From an uncultured Oscillospiraceae bacterium (GTDB taxonomy: Bacteria; Bacillota; Clostridia; Oscillospirales; Oscillospiraceae): DNA of 13,323 bases. Shown in pieces: positions 1-6,063 of the stretch. The position numbers and the translations under genes are program-made. The notes beneath the pieces were generated by a model. That model was not told the origin of the DNA. It was given only the letters and a program-made list of their open reading frames with translations, and made no database searches. Positions within the stretch are counted from its first letter, which is position 1, and each line of letters begins with the position of its first letter. The DNA is taken from assembly GCA_934636305.1 (NCBI GenBank), contig CAKUAM010000054.1, positions 1 through 13,323 of the forward strand, given 5' to 3'.

Positions 1-1415
1 GCCTGATAGATCCTGCTCTGTGCAGGATCCGGGTAAACCGTCTGTGCCTGCGCGGTAAGCCTGCGGCAACCCTCCGCAGCATCTGGATAGATGCCCGCGC
101 CGATCCCGGCAAGAATTGCGGCCCCGACACACGAGGCATCAGCCACTGCCGGCACGCGCACCGGAAGATCCGCAATATCGGCAAGCATCTGCGTCCATAC
201 GCGGCTCTTGGACGCGCCGCCTGTCAGAAGCAGGCCATCTGGTCCGGGCTTTGCTGCAAAATCCTCCAGCTTCCAGACAATCTGGAACGCAATTCCCTCC
301 ATCACGGCCCGGGCCAGGTGATAGCGGTCATGCATCAGATCCAGGCCGAGAAGCTGCGCTCTGTGCAGGGGCTGCTCATTCTTCCGCCCGCTGAAGGGAT
401 AGAAGAACAGGCCGTCCTCTGCTGCCTTTCGTTTGCAGACCTCCGCGTTGATCGTTTCATAGTCGTCTCCCGCGCCGATCTTGCTGCGCAGCCAATCGAG
501 GCAGATTCCACCTGAAGATAAGGACCACAGGGATCCCCATGTCCCGGGAGTGGCGGCGATGGACTGCGCCAGTCCGGAGGAAAAGTCCGGACGGTCATCC
601 AGCGCGGTGATGACCCAGCATGTGCCGGAGCCAATCAGAATATCGCCCTTCTGATAGGCTCCCACGCCAAGCGCTGCGGCGTACTGATCGTGTGCACCGG
701 CAACAAGCACACAGCGCTCCGAAAGGCCCAGCGCTGCGGCAGCGTCCGCAGTCAGATGGCCGATGACCTCGCCGGAGCGTACAAGCGTTGGCAGCTGCGC
801 TTCGGTGGCACCCGCAAACTGCAGCAGCGCGGAATCGTAGCATCCGCGGCGGATATCATACAGCTGATTGATCCCGGCATTGGAAGGATCAATCGCTGCA
901 ATGCCTGTGAGCATCAGGGAGATATAGTCCGGCACAGTCAGAAACCGTGCGGCACGCGCGAAGGTCTGCGGCTCGTGATCCCGGAGCCAGCGCAGCTGCA
1001 TGGCGGGCAGACCTGCGGACAGCGCCCAGCCAGTTTTTTCGTACATCTGCGCAGCATCTCCGAGCTCCTGCACAAAGTCTGCAGCCTCGTCTTTGCAGCG
1101 CAGGTCGTTCCAGACAATCGCCGGACGCAGCGCAGCTGCGCTGTCATCCACAGGGACAACCGTACCGCCCTGCGTGGACAGGGAAATGGCGCTTACCCTC
1201 TGCGCAATCTCCGGATCGATGCAGAGCTCACGGACGGTTTCACATACGGCCGCCCACCAGTGCTCCGCCTGCTGCTCACATCTGCCGACTGCGGGCGTAT
1301 GCGTCGGATAGGCGCGGTAGCTCCTGCCAAGGAGCTTGCCGCAAGAGTCAAACAGCAGCGTCTTTGTTCCGGTGGTGCCGACATCAATGCCAAGAAGATA
1401 CTGCCTGTGTTCCAT
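1..1415 (-). CDS. FGGY-family carbohydrate kinase (3' end cut by window edge)
   Basis: ATP-dependent sugar or polyol kinase of the xylulokinase/glycerol kinase superfamily, predicted cytoplasmic. Reading from the ATG at 1415, 471 residues are open without a frameshift to the edge. The N-terminal phosphate-1 motif is GIDVGTTGTKT (residues 9-19). The probable catalytic base is Asp243 in AGAHDQ, followed by GSGTCW (262-267). The C-terminal adenosine motif is LLLTGGASKSRVW (395-407), then DASCVGAAILAG. Usual family length is about 480-510, so roughly 20-40 residues are missing at the left edge. The substrate loop reads STQGGTVVPVD rather than the SGQMHG of true xylulokinases, so the substrate cannot be named. 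The start lies 2 bp after the stop of the upstream YjbQ gene, implying translational coupling; its own RBS is weak. Family is certain, substrate unknown. Confidence 0.93.
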   Translation of the reverse strand, partial: MEHRQYLLGIDVGTTGTKTLLFDSCGKLLGRSYRAYPTHTPAVGRCEQQAEHWWAAVCETVRELCIDPEIAQRVSAISLSTQGGTVVPVDDSAAALRPAIVWNDLRCKDEAADFVQELGDAAQMYEKTGWALSAGLPAMQLRWLRDHEPQTFARAARFLTVPDYISLMLTGIAAIDPSNAGINQLYDIRRGCYDSALLQFAGATEAQLPTLVRSGEVIGHLTADAAAALGLSERCVLVAGAHDQYAAALGVGAYQKGDILIGSGTCWVITALDDRPDFSSGLAQSIAATPGTWGSLWSLSSGGICLDWLRSKIGAGDDYETINAEVCKRKAAEDGLFFYPFSGRKNEQPLHRAQLLGLDLMHDRYHLARAVMEGIAFQIVWKLEDFAAKPGPDGLLLTGGASKSRVWTQMLADIADLPVRVPAVADASCVGAAILAGIGAGIYPDAAEGCRRLTAQAQTVYPDPAQSRIYQ

Positions 1416-1417
1416 AC

Positions 1418-2047
1418 TTAATATTTTCTTGCGTCGAGCTGGAGGGTGTAGTGGACGTCGTGTGCTTTTTCTTCGTCGGTGTATTTGCGGAGGGTGTTGA
1501 TGGTCTGGCCGCCGTGGAACTTGCGGTCGTTCACATCTTCCGTCGTGCCCATGACGGTGACGTTCAGCTGACGGTGACGGGCGCGGACGTGATCCCAGTC
1601 AATGAAGTAGATGTGCGCGAACTCGCCGCCATCGAGGACGCCGTCCTTGATGGTCATGGTCTCGCTGCGGCCAAAGAATACCGAGCGCAGGTGGCCGTCG
1701 GTGTTCATGCTGGTGTAGTCGCCCGGCTCGTTGACGTAGCGGCCAAACTGCGTATGGATGGGGCCTGGATGACGGTACTGATGCTCCTCGGCAAAGTCGG
1801 GGATCATCTTGCGCATGATATCCAGCAGATCATGCTGCAGATATTCCAGATCGAACGAGTCGATATCGTGCGAGCACTCCTGGATCATGACCGAGCAGGT
1901 TGTATGGTGCGATGCGATGCAGACGGTGCCGTTCTTCACGCCGGATTCCTTGACAATCTCCACAACCTCACGGGAAACATCGTGGAAGGTGGGGATCCAG
2001 CCGCGGGACTGCAGCTCGAGTTCTTTCTGATAAACCTTGAATTCCAT
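1418..2047 (-). CDS. UPF0047/YjbQ family protein, long form (YjbQ-2)
   Basis: A 209-aa member of UPF0047, annotated elsewhere as secondary thiamine-phosphate synthase after weak activity of E. coli YjbQ; the true reaction of the family is not settled. Family blocks seen: SHHTTCSVMIQE (46-57), NTDGHLRSVFFGRS (115-128), and DGGEFAHIYFIDWDHVRARHR (from 139). The conserved His, Thr, Glu and Asn residues expected to form the metal/phosphate pocket are present. Family members are usually 130-140 aa; this one carries a tail of about 42 residues after residue 167, rich in charged residues. The ATG at 2047 has a strong GGAGGT (2054-2059) six bases upstream. It is a paralogue of the protein at 2682-3176, separated from it by the SIS gene. 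Neighbouring sugar enzymes argue for a sugar-phosphate role rather than thiamine synthesis. Confidence 0.9.
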   Translation of the reverse strand: MEFKVYQKELELQSRGWIPTFHDVSREVVEIVKESGVKNGTVCIASHHTTCSVMIQECSHDIDSFDLEYLQHDLLDIMRKMIPDFAEEHQYRHPGPIHTQFGRYVNEPGDYTSMNTDGHLRSVFFGRSETMTIKDGVLDGGEFAHIYFIDWDHVRARHRQLNVTVMGTTEDVNDRKFHGGQTINTLRKYTDEEKAHDVHYTLQLDARKY

Positions 2048-2074
2048 TGTTCTACCTCCAATTATTCAGTCGTC

Positions 2075-2689
2075 TTATAACGGTTTGTGGTTGAGCCGCT
2101 CTCCAACGGCTCCGCCTGGATGGATGAGTGCAAATTGCTCGGCCTGATAGCCGGTTTCCTCAATCAGTGCGGCCTGCAGCGCGTGAAAGATCATGCACAG
2201 TGCCGTTGTGGACGTCGTTCCCTGCGCGTTCCATTTATCTGTCTCGCGGTTCACGTGCTGCTTGAGCACCACGTCTGCTGCCTGTGCCAGCGGGGATTCC
2301 AGATTCTCTGTCACCGTGATGATTGATACGCCCTTGGCCTTGCAGATCTCCACAATGGGCAGCAGCTCCTTCGTCTTGCCGCCGCGGGAGGCAAATACCA
2401 TCACGTCGCCCCTCTGCAGAAAGCCTGTTGCACCGTGAACGGCCTCTGCCGGGGAAATGAAGCGGGCAGGACGCTCGATGCAGCACATGAGGTGCGCAAA
2501 ATGTTGGCAGATGATGCCGGAATGGCCGCAGCCGGCTGCGCCGATGCGCGGTGCGTTTGTCAGCAGCCGGACGGCGCGTGCAAACGCGACCTCGTCAAAA
2601 TACGCCTTCATCTCCAGAATACACTGCGCTTCAATGTCATAGGCGGCCCTGGCCGCCTCAATGGCCTCTCGTTTCATCGCCTTATTCAC
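2075..2689 (-). CDS. SIS-domain sugar-phosphate isomerase, KpsF/GutQ type without CBS domains
   Basis: About 204 aa, one SIS (sugar isomerase) domain, predicted cytoplasmic aldose-ketose phosphate isomerase. Diagnostic features match the arabinose-5-phosphate isomerase branch: GAAGCGHSG (50-58, phosphosugar loop), SPAEAVHGATGF (79-90), FASRGGKTKEL (99-109), TTSTTA (158-163) and the C-terminal HPGGAVGERL (190-199). The CBS pair typical of KpsF/KdsD is absent. Two starts are possible: GTG at 2689, overlapping the upstream YjbQ gene by 8 bp, or ATG at 2677, 4 bp beyond its stop. Neither has a good RBS, so reinitiation from the upstream gene is likely. In this operon it probably isomerises the phosphorylated product of the FGGY kinase, but substrate identity is inference. 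Confidence 0.88.
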   Translation of the reverse strand: MNKAMKREAIEAARAAYDIEAQCILEMKAYFDEVAFARAVRLLTNAPRIGAAGCGHSGIICQHFAHLMCCIERPARFISPAEAVHGATGFLQRGDVMVFASRGGKTKELLPIVEICKAKGVSIITVTENLESPLAQAADVVLKQHVNRETDKWNAQGTTSTTALCMIFHALQAALIEETGYQAEQFALIHPGGAVGERLNHKPL

Positions 2690-3176
2690 CGATCAGCATG
2701 ACCTGCACGGTGCGCTTGCGCGCGCGGGTCTGATCCCAGTCAATGAAGTGGACGCGTCCAAATTCGCCGAGGTCAAGCTGTCCGTCCTCCATGACAACCG
2801 TGACGCTGCGCCCGATGATGGACGAACGCAGATGGGCGTCTGTGTTGTGGCAGCCGAAGTTGTCCTCGCCGACGGACTCGGCAAAGTCCAGCGCCTTTCT
2901 GCCGGGATGCAGATACATCCCCTCGTAGCGGCAGGTGGGGATCCAGTTTTCAAAGACGTTGACAAGATCCTGCTGCAGCGTCTCAAGCCCGGTCATGGAC
3001 ATATCAAACGCGCATTCCTGCGTGATGACAGAGCAGGTCGTATGGTGGGAATAGACGACACAGATGCCGTTTTTCATGCCGGACTTTGCGGCAATCTCCT
3101 TGACCTGTGCGGTCACATCGTGGAAGGATACCGCGCGGTCGCGCGACTGAAGCTGAAGTGATTCTCTGTAGACCAT
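2682..3176 (-). CDS. UPF0047/YjbQ family protein, short form (YjbQ-1)
   Basis: A 164-aa UPF0047 protein. Family blocks: YSHHTTCSVITQE (42-54), CHNTDAHLRSSIIGRS (109-124), and LDLGEFGRVHFIDWDQTRARKR (from 134). It shares these blocks with YjbQ-2 (1418-2047) but ends at the normal family end, without the tail. The start ATG at 3176 has AGGAGA (3184-3189) seven bases upstream, and that RBS overlaps the stop of the preceding triosephosphate-isomerase-like gene. Its stop overlaps the possible GTG start of the SIS gene. UPF0047 proteins are small single-domain proteins that form trimers in known structures, so two co-expressed paralogues could form mixed oligomers. The automatic name would be secondary thiamine-phosphate synthase, but nothing around it concerns thiamine. 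Confidence 0.9.
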   Translation of the reverse strand: MVYRESLQLQSRDRAVSFHDVTAQVKEIAAKSGMKNGICVVYSHHTTCSVITQECAFDMSMTGLETLQQDLVNVFENWIPTCRYEGMYLHPGRKALDFAESVGEDNFGCHNTDAHLRSSIIGRSVTVVMEDGQLDLGEFGRVHFIDWDQTRARKRTVQVMLIGE

Positions 3177-3188
3177 ATTCTGTTCTCC

Positions 3189-3896
3189 TTATCCGTTCTG
3201 TTTTTTCAGATCGTCTGCCGCGCGGCGGGTTGCGGCAATCATTTCGTCGATCATGGCAAGGGGATCCGCTGCGTTCATGATGCCGGAGGCTGCGCCGGCA
3301 GCTTCGGAGCCGGCCATGATGAAGTCATAGACCTCCTGCCCGCAGGTGATGCCTGCCGCCTGCTCGACCATGATGTTGGGGTCAATTTCCTTGATGACCC
3401 GGATGGAGTCGCGGACGTATGCCATGGGGCTCGAGCCCTTGCCGCCGCCAATGATCTCCGAGGGCTCGGGGTTGATGATGTCGGGGTGCAGCTGGGCGAT
3501 GGCCTTCGCCTCATCGAGCGTATCGGCGCAGGCAAAGACAAGGAAGTCCAGCTCCCGTGCGCGGTCGATGGTTTTTTTCATCTGCGGCAGGCTCATGGGC
3601 TTTTCGCAGTGGTTGATCATTACGCCGACCGCGCCGGCGGCCTTCAGACCCTCCGGCAGGATATCCGCGCAGCCGCGGCCGGGGCGGAGCGTGTCCATGT
3701 ACGTTGCCAGCACGAACAGGTGCTTCGTGTTTTCCGCCACGCGGCGGACTTCCAGTGCCGGGCAGATAAACAGCACGTCAATATCATATTTCTCGGCGGC
3801 CTTGTCTGCAGCGATGGCATACTCCAGAAGCTTATCGCCGTATACGTAGTTTTTTGTTCCGACTTCAAAATACGGGGTTCGAATGGTGGGTTTCAT
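3189..3896 (-). CDS. Triosephosphate isomerase family protein (short, archaeal-like; probable specialised paralogue)
   Basis: A 235-aa TIM-barrel isomerase. Counterparts of the three catalytic residues are visible: Lys15 in GTKNY (strand 1), His96 in INHCEK (usual NHSE or GHSE) and Glu144 in NPEPSEIIGGG (usual EPxELIGTG). The late phosphate-binding region is AGITCGQEVYDFIMAGSEAAGAASGI. Length matches archaeal TIMs (about 220-235) rather than bacterial TpiA (about 250). The ATG at 3896 is chosen because AAGGAGC (3904-3910) precedes it at proper spacing; the frame extends upstream only through DeoR sequence. Sitting between a DeoR regulator and sugar isomerases rather than among glycolytic genes, it is more likely a dedicated isomerase for a tetrulose- or triose-phosphate, as TIM homologues EryH/LerI are in erythritol and erythrulose catabolism. 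That comparison is inference. Confidence 0.85.
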   Translation of the reverse strand: MKPTIRTPYFEVGTKNYVYGDKLLEYAIAADKAAEKYDIDVLFICPALEVRRVAENTKHLFVLATYMDTLRPGRGCADILPEGLKAAGAVGVMINHCEKPMSLPQMKKTIDRARELDFLVFACADTLDEAKAIAQLHPDIINPEPSEIIGGGKGSSPMAYVRDSIRVIKEIDPNIMVEQAAGITCGQEVYDFIMAGSEAAGAASGIMNAADPLAMIDEMIAATRRAADDLKKQNG

Positions 3897-3918
3897 TGTA
3901 ACTGCTCCTTTTTCTGTT

Positions 3919-4698
3919 TTATGGTTGCACTTGGGTGCAGATGAGCTTGACATTGGTCTTTTCCAGCCTGACACGCACGTCATCGCGGAGCGCTGCATCG
4001 GTAATCACCGCGTAGAGCGCGGATGCCGGCACGCATTCCACGTGCGCCTCCACGGTAAACTTGGAGGAATCGGCCAGAAGAATCGACTGCATGGAATGCT
4101 TGATGGCCAGCTGGTTCATTTTGGCTGTTTCAAAATCCGTTGTGGTAAAGCAGTTGTCCGCCGAACAGCCGTCCGCACCCACAAAGCTCTTGCTGAAATA
4201 CAGGCCGGCAAGCGACTGCTCTGTCAGATAGCCGCAGAAATCCTTGCGATTTGGCCGATACTTGCCGCCAAGCAGCGTTACATCCATATGCGGGGAAAGC
4301 AGATCCAGATTAGCCAGCGAGTTTGTATAGACCTGAATGTGGATCTGCTTCTGCCGCAGATATTCGATCAGCTGCCCGCAGAAGCACTGGATTGTTGTGC
4401 CGGAGTCACAGAAAATAATGTCACCGTCGGCAAGAAGCTGACATGCCTCGCGCGCGATGGCCGTCTTTTGGGCAATGTTGCTCTTTTCTCCGTGCTCGAA
4501 GGAATAGGGCACCATCCCATGGCTCAGATACTGGATTCCGCCATGCGTCCGCACGGCGACACCGTCGCGCTCCAGCTTTTCAAACAGCCGGCGCACAGTG
4601 GACTCCGATACGCCAAGCTGCGTTTTCACATCCTCCAGACTGAGCTTATGGGACAGCTGCAGGCTGGCAATCAGCTTTTGTTCACGTTCACTTTTCAT
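3919..4698 (-). CDS. DeoR/GlpR-family transcriptional regulator of sugar metabolism
   Basis: A 259-aa cytoplasmic regulator. The N-terminal DeoR helix-turn-helix spans residues 4-57, with LSLEDVKTQLGVSESTVRRL and the wing ERDGVAVRTHGG. The C-terminal sugar-phosphate sensor domain (about 75-230) shows DSGTT (98-102), VYTNSLANLDLL, LLGGKYRPN, GADG (174-177) and LLADSSKF (207-214). All these are standard for the family, which is usually 250-260 aa. I chose the ATG at 4698; in-frame upstream ATGs lie inside the DUF4432 gene. AGCAGG lies next to the chosen ATG. Encoded inside the operon, it is probably a repressor relieved by a phosphorylated intermediate. Its likely targets are the paired 17-bp boxes at 6124-6162. 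Confidence 0.93.
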   Translation of the reverse strand: MKSEREQKLIASLQLSHKLSLEDVKTQLGVSESTVRRLFEKLERDGVAVRTHGGIQYLSHGMVPYSFEHGEKSNIAQKTAIAREACQLLADGDIIFCDSGTTIQCFCGQLIEYLRQKQIHIQVYTNSLANLDLLSPHMDVTLLGGKYRPNRKDFCGYLTEQSLAGLYFSKSFVGADGCSADNCFTTTDFETAKMNQLAIKHSMQSILLADSSKFTVEAHVECVPASALYAVITDAALRDDVRVRLEKTNVKLICTQVQP

Positions 4699-4720
4699 CC
4701 TGCTTTTTCCTGTCCTGTTC

Positions 4721-5740
4721 TCAGCCATCGAGCGATGCCCGCAGCGCCTGGATTTCCTCCGCACCGTCCAGAATGCCGATTTCCAGCTCGTTTTCAATGC
4801 TGGAATAGGCGGGAAGCACTGGGATTTTCCCGGATTGTATGGCGTTGACGCGGTTTGTCTCTACACAGCTGCACGGCTCGAACGCGAGCACATAATCATG
4901 CGCGCGCAGGAGCTTCCACTGCATCATATACGGCAGATGCTTCGTCTGATAGCGGACATACACGCCCAGCCCCAGCCGGTCATTTGCAAGCATACCGGTT
5001 GCCGTCTGGCCGAAGCCGGTGTAATAGAACATCTCCTCCGGCCTGTCCTCCGAGGGAGGCGCCATATGCACCGGATCCGTTGTGCAGTCGCCCATCGGCA
5101 TCCGGACGCAGCGGGAGGTTGCTGCAATGCTGTCTGCCTGCAGCAGCGGGTAGCCGAAGTTGCAGTGATACAGCAGCATATATGGCTGGTCGTGCGATTC
5201 AAAGTTGGTAATTACATCATGGATGCGGATGGTTTTCTCATCCAATCCCGTTTCGATTGTGCGGCGGATCGACAGGTGCCGTCCATACAGCCGCGTCTGG
5301 TGAATCTCTCCGCTGACCCGCAGAAGATAGCGGTCGCCGTCCCAGTATGTCTGCGTGCCGAAGCACTGCGCGGGGGTGCTGCCGATCCGGCCATGGATCG
5401 GGTATACGCCGCTTGCATCCTGACAGCTTCCGCCGACGTTGTCCAGTCCACAGGTCACCATTGCGCCGCCGGGCCATTGTTCACAAAATTCCCCATCCAT
5501 CGCAGAGTTGACCTGTGCGGAGGTGAGGCCATTTTTGCTGTGGAATGCCAGATTCACACCCTTGTAGCTCAGATCGTAGAGATCCATACACCGGTCCGGC
5601 ACAACGGTGAAGCGCAGACCGGCTGCGTTATAGAACTCGGCAATGGCGGCCCCTTCGGCGCGGCCGCGCAGCAGCCGTGCTTCACGAATACCGGCAATCT
5701 GATCGAGATTCCCGAGCTTTTTCAGAAGTTCTGTGTTCAT
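4721..5740 (-). CDS. DUF4432 family protein (aldose 1-epimerase-like)
   Basis: A 339-aa protein of the DUF4432 branch of the galactose-mutarotase superfamily. It shows VVPDRCMDLYDLSYKGVNLAF (from 46), GGAMVTCGLDNVGG (91-104), YPIHGRIGSTPA (113-124) and LLYHCNFGYPLL (189-200), the standard DUF4432 blocks including His116 and His192. A C-terminal FEPCSC matches the region where mutarotases place their catalytic Glu. It probably equilibrates anomers or epimers of the operon's sugar substrate; no substrate has been read from the sequence. The ATG at 5740 has AAGGAGC about ten bases upstream; the 13-base block 5748-5760 is identical to the one before the TIM-like gene. It is followed after 22 bp by the DeoR gene. 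Confidence 0.9.
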   Translation of the reverse strand: MNTELLKKLGNLDQIAGIREARLLRGRAEGAAIAEFYNAAGLRFTVVPDRCMDLYDLSYKGVNLAFHSKNGLTSAQVNSAMDGEFCEQWPGGAMVTCGLDNVGGSCQDASGVYPIHGRIGSTPAQCFGTQTYWDGDRYLLRVSGEIHQTRLYGRHLSIRRTIETGLDEKTIRIHDVITNFESHDQPYMLLYHCNFGYPLLQADSIAATSRCVRMPMGDCTTDPVHMAPPSEDRPEEMFYYTGFGQTATGMLANDRLGLGVYVRYQTKHLPYMMQWKLLRAHDYVLAFEPCSCVETNRVNAIQSGKIPVLPAYSSIENELEIGILDGAEEIQALRASLDG

Positions 5741-5829
5741 GCGTTGCGCTCCTTTTTCTGGGTTCTGAGAGCCGCGCCGGAAGCTGGAGTGCGCCCGGCT
5801 GCCGGCCGGAACAGTTTCAGATTCCTGAA

Positions 5830-6063
5830 TTACTTGTCGTAGATATCGCGGCGTGCGCCGTCAATCAGCGCCTTTGCGTTGCTGCAGCACAGATTCTCAA
5901 CCTCTTTTTCACCATAGCCAAGCGTCTGGCAGGCGCGCTTCAGGGCACGCAGCTCCTCGTATGTGAAGAAGGTGATGTGCTTTGCCTCCTCGGGCTTTTT
6001 CGCGCTGTGCTGCGTCATTGCTATAGACCCGGCGGTCGTTTTCTGTAACTTCAAAAGTGCCAT
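5830..6063 (-). CDS. Small protein of unknown function, first gene of the sugar operon
   Basis: A 77-aa reading frame beginning at the ATG at 6063. It is charged and lacks membrane segments or a signal peptide. The C-terminal half, FFTYEELRALKRACQTLGYG followed by a Cys-Cys pair, looks helical. I do not recognise the family. It is supported as a gene by its place directly behind the strong promoter 6112-6140, leaving a leader of about 40 bases, and by the lack of a terminator before the DUF4432 gene 89 bp on. The RBS is weak (ACGGA). A shorter start at 6018 would give 61 aa, and an upstream in-frame codon at 6123 overlaps the promoter and is unlikely. Confidence 0.6.
   Translation of the reverse strand: MALLKLQKTTAGSIAMTQHSAKKPEEAKHITFFTYEELRALKRACQTLGYGEKEVENLCCSNAKALIDGARRDIYDK

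What the first reader, a model, noticed from the sequence alone, without database searches (positions are those of the whole stretch)
1..6063. Sugar operon built around two YjbQ/UPF0047 proteins, a SIS isomerase, a TIM-like isomerase and an FGGY kinase
Seen: eight minus-strand genes with mostly 2-27 bp gaps, behind one strong promoter. Known: FGGY kinases phosphorylate sugars or polyols, SIS and TIM proteins isomerise sugar phosphates, DUF4432 is mutarotase-like, and DeoR proteins sense sugar phosphates. UPF0047 has no accepted role in sugar catabolism. Inferred: the two YjbQ proteins carry out or assist a step on a phosphorylated sugar or lactone in an undescribed pathway, perhaps for a tetrulose, pentulose or branched sugar. 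The layout recalls erythritol/erythrulose clusters (FGGY kinase, TIM homologue, further isomerase, repressor) but the enzymes are not the same set.
Basis: partly seen in the sequence, partly recalled or inferred. Interest (0 to 1): 0.72.

Follow-up and report, generated by a model that had tools for sequence, protein, structure and literature searches.

The report
YjbQ–TIM sugar-phosphate isomerase operon
A bacterium related to gut Clostridia carries a sugar-breakdown gene set in which two members of an uncharacterised protein family (YjbQ) sit beside a sugar kinase and two sugar-phosphate isomerases; the same partnership recurs in other bacteria and gives that family a testable job.

Summary
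Seven co-directional minus-strand genes run from DUF4432 to an FGGY kinase cut by the window edge.

The association is not private to this genome. Both YjbQ proteins belong to an extended YjbQ clade, apart from ordinary YjbQ (branch support 99). Its Yq1-like members have an archaeal-type triose-phosphate-isomerase (TIM) homologue on the same strand within 100 bp in 16 of 17 class-sample and 11 of 11 phylum-sample loci; 0 of 40 ordinary YjbQ genes have one within 5 kb. SIS isomerases and FGGY kinases recur, and kinase-SIS fusion genes exist in two genomes. Elsewhere a PTS replaces the kinase, with class II aldolase, transaldolase or RPE/HxlB as exit.

Best explanation: a kinase- or PTS-fed sugar-phosphate pathway in which extended YjbQ is a phosphosugar isomerase in series with the TIM homologue, moving the carbonyl along the chain, as in erythrulose-phosphate routes but with YjbQ as a new part. 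The partnership is shown; reaction and substrate are inferred. DUF4432 is not in the recurrent core. Thiamine synthesis is unlikely to be the operon's role.

The parts
3..1415 (-). FGGY carbohydrate kinase, 471 codons in the window, 3' end cut off by the window
   Evidence: PF00370 210 bits and PF02782 83 bits; best NCBIfam XylB 316 bits, under its 380.25 cut-off
1418..2047 (-). extended-clade YjbQ/UPF0047 protein 'YjbQ2' (209 aa, with a C-terminal tail)
2075..2689 (-). single-domain SIS phosphosugar isomerase, KpsF/GutQ-like, GTG start
   Evidence: PF01380 74 bits; best solved relative 3fxa; HPGG-type His190 and Glu149 kept, Lys59/Glu111 equivalents replaced
2682..3176 (-). extended-clade YjbQ/UPF0047 protein 'YjbQ1' (164 aa)
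   Evidence: PF01894 95 bits; TIGR00149 81 bits, over its 67.75 cut-off; clade
3189..3896 (-). archaeal-type triose-phosphate-isomerase homologue, start ATG 3894-3896 (the longest ORF runs to 3998)
   Evidence: NF003302/PRK04302 141.7 bits over its 132 cut-off; catalytic Lys, His and Glu kept in 132 of 132 aligned rows, some from the same genome
3919..4698 (-). DeoR-family repressor
   Evidence: PF08220 and PF00455; start by ORF reading
4721..5740 (-). DUF4432 protein, aldose-1-epimerase-like
   Evidence: PF14486 242 bits; solved relative 3ty1 'hypothetical aldose 1-epimerase'
5830..6063 (-). remnant of an amidohydrolase_2 gene (both ends present, middle missing, ends in different frames)
   Evidence: tblastn of intact amidohydrolases from L062, L053, L047, L079
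6112..6140 (-). sigma-70-like promoter with extended -10
   Evidence: 10 of 12 matches, consensus scan only

Best explanation
The window holds one version of a recurrent sugar-phosphate catabolic operon. An FGGY kinase (in relatives a PTS) phosphorylates a ketose or polyol. A TIM homologue, an extended-clade YjbQ and a SIS isomerase then isomerise the phosphosugar step by step until a central-metabolism enzyme can take it (TalC/FSA-type transaldolase, class II aldolase, or RPE/HxlB, depending on the genome). My commitment on mechanism: extended YjbQ is a phosphosugar isomerase that works directly before or after the TIM homologue; TIM shifts a ketone between C2 and C3, as its homologues LerI/EryH do on erythrulose phosphates, and YjbQ does the next shift along the chain. 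The window has two YjbQ proteins because its substrate needs one more shift, or because two related steps are needed. Shown: gene content, clade, partnership with TIM, fused kinase-SIS genes, retained TIM catalytic residues. Inferred: that YjbQ is catalytic here, that it is an isomerase, the order of steps. Unknown: the substrate.
For: Neighbourhood control within 5 kb: TIM beside 17 of 20 fetched Yq1-like regions (the 3 misses, L178-L180, fall outside the extended clade), SIS beside 21 and TIM beside 18 of 24 YjbQ2 genes, against 0 TIM, 1 SIS, 1 FGGY around 40 ordinary YjbQ genes. TIM on the same strand within 100 bp of YjbQ in 16 of 17 Yq1-like (class sample) and 11 of 11 (phylum sample) loci. 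Extended YjbQ lies on one side of a 99% SH-aLRT branch from 40 ordinary YjbQ, with members from Clostridia, Lactobacillales and Shinella. Entry module swaps: FGGY (window, L209, Shinella L083/L084/L093), galactitol-type PTS (EIIC-GAT by Pfam in L081 and L091; L082, L085, L213-L216 by similarity), sorbitol-type PTS (Pfam in L176; L212, L217 by similarity). Exit module swaps: class II aldolase, transaldolase, RPE+HxlB. FGGY-SIS single-chain fusions of 661 and 654 aa in two genomes (L037, L048). TIM Lys/His/Glu in 132 of 132 rows. LerI/EryH precedent: PMC10733421, PMC5992420 (passages). Weak outside hint that a YjbQ fold can touch small phosphorylated compounds: overexpressed E. coli yjbQ relieves a pdxB mutant's B6 auxotrophy by an unknown reaction suggested to feed in upstream of SerC and PdxJ (PMC7954711, passages).
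Against: No substrate or activity is known for any extended member. YjbQ2 loci can lack a TIM nearby (6 of 24 within 5 kb, some at contig ends; 26 of the 80 loci), and for YjbQ2 the TIM is on the same strand within 100 bp in only 8 of 24. L085 and L091 have HxlB/RPE instead of TIM, so TIM is not strictly needed. The SIS lacks two residues that I recall as catalytic in arabinose-5-phosphate isomerase. The pattern fits equally a non-isomerase step. The window operon carries a damaged first gene and may be decaying.
Confidence: 0.5

Rival explanations
1. YjbQ takes the place of RpiB/EryI in a tetrose pathway: TIM converts L-erythrulose-1-phosphate to D-erythrulose-4-phosphate and YjbQ converts that to D-erythrose-4-phosphate, which the transaldolase, transketolase or aldolase drains.
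For: Shinella operons hold SDR, sugar-phosphate epimerase, TIM, YjbQ and FGGY with a DhaKL kinase nearby and no RpiB among the annotated genes of the stretches shown, much like the Ery/Ler gene sets (PMC5992420 and PMC10733421 passages). L176 has TalC and transketolase within 6 kb of FBA-TIM-YjbQ. E. coli yjbQ in excess bypasses PdxB, the 4-phosphoerythronate dehydrogenase, by an unknown reaction (PMC7954711 passages).
Against: Most YjbQ2 operons also hold a SIS isomerase, which would make YjbQ redundant; two YjbQ proteins would not be needed; AraA-like and FucI-like isomerases suggest aldoses of five or six carbons.
Confidence: 0.2
2. YjbQ is a non-catalytic or repair partner: a subunit that binds TIM, a mutarotase, or an enzyme that removes a toxic side product of the TIM reaction.
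For: TIM and Yq1-like YjbQ genes are almost always adjacent, which also fits a complex or damage control; ordinary YjbQ is known to me only for weak secondary activities (PMC3091646 passages, citing Morett 2008; PMC7954711 passages).
Against: The polar residues shared with ordinary YjbQ (Asp73, His93, Asn115, His119, Asp152, Arg155) are kept, which suggests an active site; L085 and L091 have YjbQ without TIM.
Confidence: 0.2
3. The YjbQ proteins are secondary thiamine-phosphate synthases that happen to lie in a sugar operon.
For: TIGR00149 is named so and YjbQ1 passes its cut-off; YjbQ was reported to rescue a thiE mutant (PMC3091646 passages, citing Morett 2008). 17 of the 35 genomes with extended YjbQ hold no further PF01894 gene, so there it could be the only YjbQ (my count).
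Against: The sugar-operon YjbQ form their own clade with a sugar-gene neighbourhood absent from ordinary YjbQ; no TPP riboswitch passed threshold in 8 sources including the window; 18 of the 35 genomes do hold further PF01894 genes.
Confidence: 0.05
4. The window's operon is a decaying copy without present function.
For: The first gene is an internally deleted amidohydrolase_2; AraA-like and amidohydrolase genes, each linked to YjbQ1 in 10 of 14 loci, are otherwise absent from the window.
Against: Seven further reading frames are open (the kinase runs off the edge), spacing is tight, TIM catalytic residues are intact, and G152 (L181) has a similar set with two YjbQ, TIM, SIS, DeoR, DUF4432 and FGGY.
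Confidence: 0.1

Closest known systems
Erythritol / L-threitol / erythrulose-phosphate pathways (EryA-EryB-EryC-EryH-EryI; EltD-LerK-LerI-DerI)
   Same: A kinase, then a TIM homologue that moves the ketone of a tetrulose phosphate, then a second isomerase that gives an aldose phosphate; a DeoR-family regulator (EryR) occurs in the Brucella set (PMC5992420 and PMC10733421 passages).
   Different: No polyol dehydrogenase, EryC-type epimerase or RpiB among the operon genes of the window; an archaeal-type TIM; a SIS isomerase and two YjbQ proteins instead. The window is truncated, so absences are provisional.
Arabinose-5-phosphate isomerases (KdsD/KpsF/GutQ)
   Same: Same SIS family; the His of the HPGG motif (111 of 111) and Glu149 (110 of 111) are kept.
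   Different: No CBS domains found; 100 of 111 relatives have His in place of the Lys59 equivalent and 103 of 111 Lys in place of the Glu111 equivalent (residue roles recalled). Under the GutQ/KdsD cut-offs.
YjbQ/UPF0047 (TIGR00149, 'secondary thiamine-phosphate synthase')
   Same: Same fold and shared core residues.
   Different: Own clade with an inserted Pro-Gly region, Cys51 for Ala, Arg121 for Lys and Asp150 for Glu; YjbQ2 scores under the TIGR00149 cut-off.
HxlB (6-phospho-3-hexuloisomerase) and RPE modules
   Same: Occur with extended YjbQ in L091, L085, L207, L208, L210; the known families catalyse a ketone shift and a C3 epimerisation on ketose phosphates (recalled).
   Different: Not present in the window; no HxlA (formaldehyde-fixing partner) among the annotated genes of L091; L207 was not scanned in full for it.

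Membership tests
UPF0047/YjbQ (PF01894) | score over the Pfam cut-off | tested here: met
   87.0 and 94.8 bits against 27
UPF0047/YjbQ (PF01894) | YjbQ fold | tested here: met
TIGR00149 secondary thiamine-phosphate synthase | score over the NCBIfam cut-off | tested here: inconclusive
   YjbQ1 81 (over 67.75), YjbQ2 64.7 (under)
TIGR00149 secondary thiamine-phosphate synthase | thiamine-phosphate synthase activity | not testable with these tools
   needs enzyme or thiE complementation assay
FGGY kinase | FGGY_N and FGGY_C domains | tested here: met
   210 and 82.9 bits
Xylulokinase XylB (TIGR01312) | score over the equivalog cut-off | tested here: not met
   316 against 380.25, with the C-terminus cut off by the window
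Triose-phosphate isomerase, archaeal type (PRK04302) | score over the subfamily cut-off and catalytic Lys, His, Glu | tested here: met
   141.7 against 132; residues in 132 of 132 rows
Triose-phosphate isomerase equivalog (TIGR00419) | score over the equivalog cut-off | tested here: not met
   62.9 against 130.6
KdsD/GutQ arabinose-5-phosphate isomerase | score over the equivalog cut-offs | tested here: not met
   GutQ 117 against 481 and KdsD 110.6 against 505, full-length models with further domains
Erythritol/erythrulose pathway | FGGY kinase plus TIM homologue in one operon | tested here: met
   co-transcription not tested
Erythritol/erythrulose pathway | polyol dehydrogenase, EryC-type epimerase and RpiB | tested here: inconclusive
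   none among the Pfam hits of the operon genes, but the operon runs off the window
Erythritol/erythrulose pathway | activity on tetrulose phosphates | not testable with these tools
   needs purified enzymes
DUF4432 / aldose 1-epimerase-like | score over the Pfam cut-off | tested here: met
   241.9 against 32.5

The most novel reading that the evidence does not exclude
A 'carbonyl relay': TIM, one or two YjbQ proteins and a SIS isomerase walk the carbonyl of a ketose phosphate step by step along the carbon chain, so that a sugar phosphorylated at one end leaves as an aldose or ketose phosphate numbered from the other end. The number of isomerases would scale with chain length: TIM+YjbQ in aldolase and Shinella operons, TIM+YjbQ+SIS in many Clostridia, TIM+2 YjbQ+SIS in the window. 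UPF0047 would thereby become a new phosphosugar isomerase family.
Probability: 0.27. Interest if true: 0.85.

Novelty: new variant of a known kind. Interest (0 to 1): 0.66.

Why it matters
UPF0047/YjbQ is a widespread family (116 of 245 sampled genomes of one class hold it; 10 of 14 control genomes too) with at least nine solved structures and, to my knowledge, no accepted physiological role. A clade with fixed partners, interchangeable entry and exit modules, and cultivable carriers (Lacticaseibacillus paracasei, Shinella) makes its function directly testable. If YjbQ is a phosphosugar isomerase, it adds an enzyme family to rare-sugar use in the gut and would guide work on the ordinary YjbQ proteins as well.

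Tried and rejected
Literature: no paper linking YjbQ to a sugar operon was seen in ten searches, which cover open-licence PMC only; searches did not search for YjbQ by name. The 24 papers holding 'YjbQ' were seen as a listing; of these I read passages of four (PMC3091646, PMC7954711, PMC4731195, PMC7044273). PMC7044273 lists yjbQ among genes of P. aeruginosa that change with fructooligosaccharide, as one row of a table.

HxlB as a replacement for TIM: suggested by L085 and L091, dropped as a general rule because L207, L208 and L210 hold both.

A 1-deoxyketose / methylerythritol reading (DRL-type oxidoreductase by Pfam in L176 and by similarity in L211, L212, L217; E1/E2(/E3) complex genes in L065, L073, L077, L211): chemically attractive, but few loci and no such genes in the window; left as a lead.

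Sulfoquinovose: the FucI-like neighbour hit NF048012 at 53.5 bits against a cut-off of 700, so not pursued.

The 17 Yq1-like loci are what remained of 20 fetched regions after dropping L178-L180; not every Yq1-like row was fetched. L147, L160 and L178-L180 were dropped. Seven of the 40 control loci had under 5 kb on one side. In L177 YjbQ is split over two ORFs. The first-pass gene calling picked shadow ORFs in the GC-rich window and was replaced, and the map still misnames the window's DeoR/DUF4432 stretch. Neighbour families were called by local profiles or single-sequence searches, and only representatives were scanned with Pfam or NCBIfam.


Full report
What is there. The left 6.1 kb of the window holds one minus-strand gene cluster: remnant - DUF4432 - DeoR - TIM - YjbQ1 - SIS - YjbQ2 - FGGY, the kinase running off the window. 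Family assignments are solid by Pfam. NCBIfam places the TIM in the archaeal-type subfamily PRK04302, leaves the kinase under the xylulokinase cut-off and the SIS under the GutQ/KdsD cut-offs. YjbQ1 and YjbQ2 share 47% identity. A sigma-70-like site with extended -10 lies at the start of the cluster.

The first 'gene' is a remnant. Its ORF matches the last ~52 residues of an amidohydrolase_2 (62-67% identity to four intact homologues), and a short stretch around its ATG matches that protein's N-terminus in another frame; about 290 codons between are missing. In relatives the same amidohydrolase is linked to YjbQ1 and an AraA-like isomerase: YjbQ1 with AraA-like in 10 and with amidohydrolase_2 in 10 of 14 YjbQ1-bearing loci, among 57 loci with at least 8 kb of summed flank. 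The window operon therefore probably descends from that type.

The association recurs. Within 6 kb of YjbQ2 in these 80: SIS 70, TIM 55, FGGY 52, TalC-type transaldolase 24, DeoR 24, YjbQ1 18, amidohydrolase_2 15, AraA-like 14. In an even sample of one class, 35 of 245 genomes had a match to the YjbQ2 profile at E 1e-15 or better; 24 of the places were full-length YjbQ2 by score. Around these 24, within 5 kb: SIS 21, TIM 18, FGGY 15; two had none of the three, both with under 1 kb on one side.

The association is specific. Ordinary YjbQ genes from the same class sample served as control: 40 loci, TIM 0, SIS 1, FGGY 1. The 47 extended YjbQ rows and the 40 ordinary ones separate on a branch with 99% SH-aLRT support (quick search, some long branches). 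Extended YjbQ has Cys51 for Ala, Arg121 for Lys, Asp150 for Glu and an inserted Pro94-Gly95 region, while Asp73, His93, Asn115, His119, Asp152 and Arg155 are shared. The AlphaFold2 model of YjbQ2 (pLDDT 84.5) has the YjbQ fold, residues 81-120 with the insertion being the least certain part.

The partnership with TIM is the closest one for Yq1-like genes. TIM lies on the same strand within 100 bp of YjbQ in 16 of 17 Yq1-like loci of the class sample, in 11 of 11 of the phylum sample and in 6 of 8 plasmid loci; for YjbQ2 the figure is 8 of 24, with TIM within 6 kb in 19 of 24. In the phylum samples, 12 of 398 and 2 of 288 genomes had an extended YjbQ, each count including the genome the sample was centred on. 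The TIM homologues keep the catalytic Lys, His and Glu in 132 of 132 rows; those of the E. faecium, L. paracasei and Shinella plasmids are 37-41% identical to the window's.

The ends are interchangeable. Entry: FGGY kinase (window; L209 with an ABC transporter and a zinc-type dehydrogenase; Shinella with SDR and an epimerase), a galactitol-type PTS (EIIC-GAT by Pfam in L081 and L091; others by similarity), or a sorbitol-type PTS with a DRL-type oxidoreductase (Pfam in L176; L212 and L217 by similarity). Exit: class II aldolase (7 of 11 phylum-sample loci), TalC, RPE with HxlB. FGGY and SIS are fused in one chain of 661 and 654 aa in two genomes (L037, L048; L190 and L102 are the second genome again, judged by the shared contig length), without an internal stop. 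The fusion ties kinase and SIS to one pathway.

How it most likely works. TIM homologues are known to shift the ketone of erythrulose phosphates (LerI, EryH; passages of PMC10733421 and PMC5992420). With TIM as the closest neighbour and a kinase or PTS upstream, the natural place for YjbQ is the adjacent isomerisation. The SIS keeps the His of HPGG and Glu149 but not the equivalents of Lys59 and Glu111 (100 of 111 have His, 103 of 111 have Lys; the roles of these residues in KdsD are recalled), so it probably acts on a substrate other than arabinose 5-phosphate. Kinases differ much more between loci (median pairwise identity 26%) than YjbQ2 (89%), SIS (71%) or TIM (53%); with the caution that loci were picked by YjbQ2 identity, this fits different sugars feeding one common phosphorylated intermediate. 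A weak hint from outside: excess E. coli YjbQ bypasses PdxB in vitamin B6 synthesis by an unknown reaction (PMC7954711 passages). The reaction itself is inference.

What it is not likely to be. No TPP riboswitch passed threshold in the window and seven relatives, and the recurrent neighbours are sugar-metabolic, so the 'secondary thiamine-phosphate synthase' name probably does not describe its role here. DUF4432 was found in none of the 80 loci and in only three others (L181, L182, partly L195), so it is an accessory.

Verdict. Filed as a new variant of kinase-plus-TIM sugar-phosphate pathways, with UPF0047 as the new part.

Noticed in passing
window 5830-6063: Internally deleted amidohydrolase_2 gene at the head of the operon, both termini still recognisable; a natural deletion or an assembly fault cannot be told apart here.
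   Followed up: yes
L037:830-2815, L048:7985-9949: FGGY kinase and SIS isomerase fused in one reading frame in two genomes.
   Followed up: partly
L065, L073, L077: E2, E3 and fused E1 genes of a 2-oxoacid/acetoin-type dehydrogenase lie in tandem with TIM-SIS-YjbQ2 and a transaldolase (Pfam on representatives); perhaps an acyloin-cleaving exit.
   Followed up: partly
L211:611-6260: A DRL-type oxidoreductase, a DeoR/LsrR-type regulator, E1 alpha, E1 beta and E2 genes next to YjbQ-TIM-aldolase.
   Followed up: partly
plasmid records: 152 of 161 plasmid records with a YjbQ2 relative are Enterococcus, many of the listed ones E. faecium; 82 of the 161 are predicted conjugative. The E. faecium loci read carry it behind a PTS.
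   Followed up: partly
L085:9532-10047: The RPE-like reading frame of an E. faecium plasmid is only 171 aa and is not in the (incomplete) gene table; it may be broken.
   Followed up: no
L181:10486-10662: malK-I RNA (146.7 bits) overlapping the start of a MalK-type ABC ATPase ORF beside the operon most like the window's.
   Followed up: no
L033, L008, L006, L173, L219: NagA-like and NagB-like genes beside TIM/SIS/YjbQ operons (all 9 NagA-like loci of the 57 also have NagB-like), pointing to an amino-sugar variant.
   Followed up: no
L074, L014, L005: ~500-aa proteins (Cer1 cluster) recur with the FucI-like isomerase near YjbQ2 (5 of 7 Cer1 loci); the representative had no Pfam or NCBIfam match at the limits used. 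They look like neutral ceramidase-type hydrolases by eye only.
   Followed up: no
PMC7954711: Overexpressed E. coli yjbQ relieves the B6 auxotrophy of a pdxB mutant by an unexplained reaction (passages), which may be a handle on what the YjbQ fold can do.
   Followed up: no
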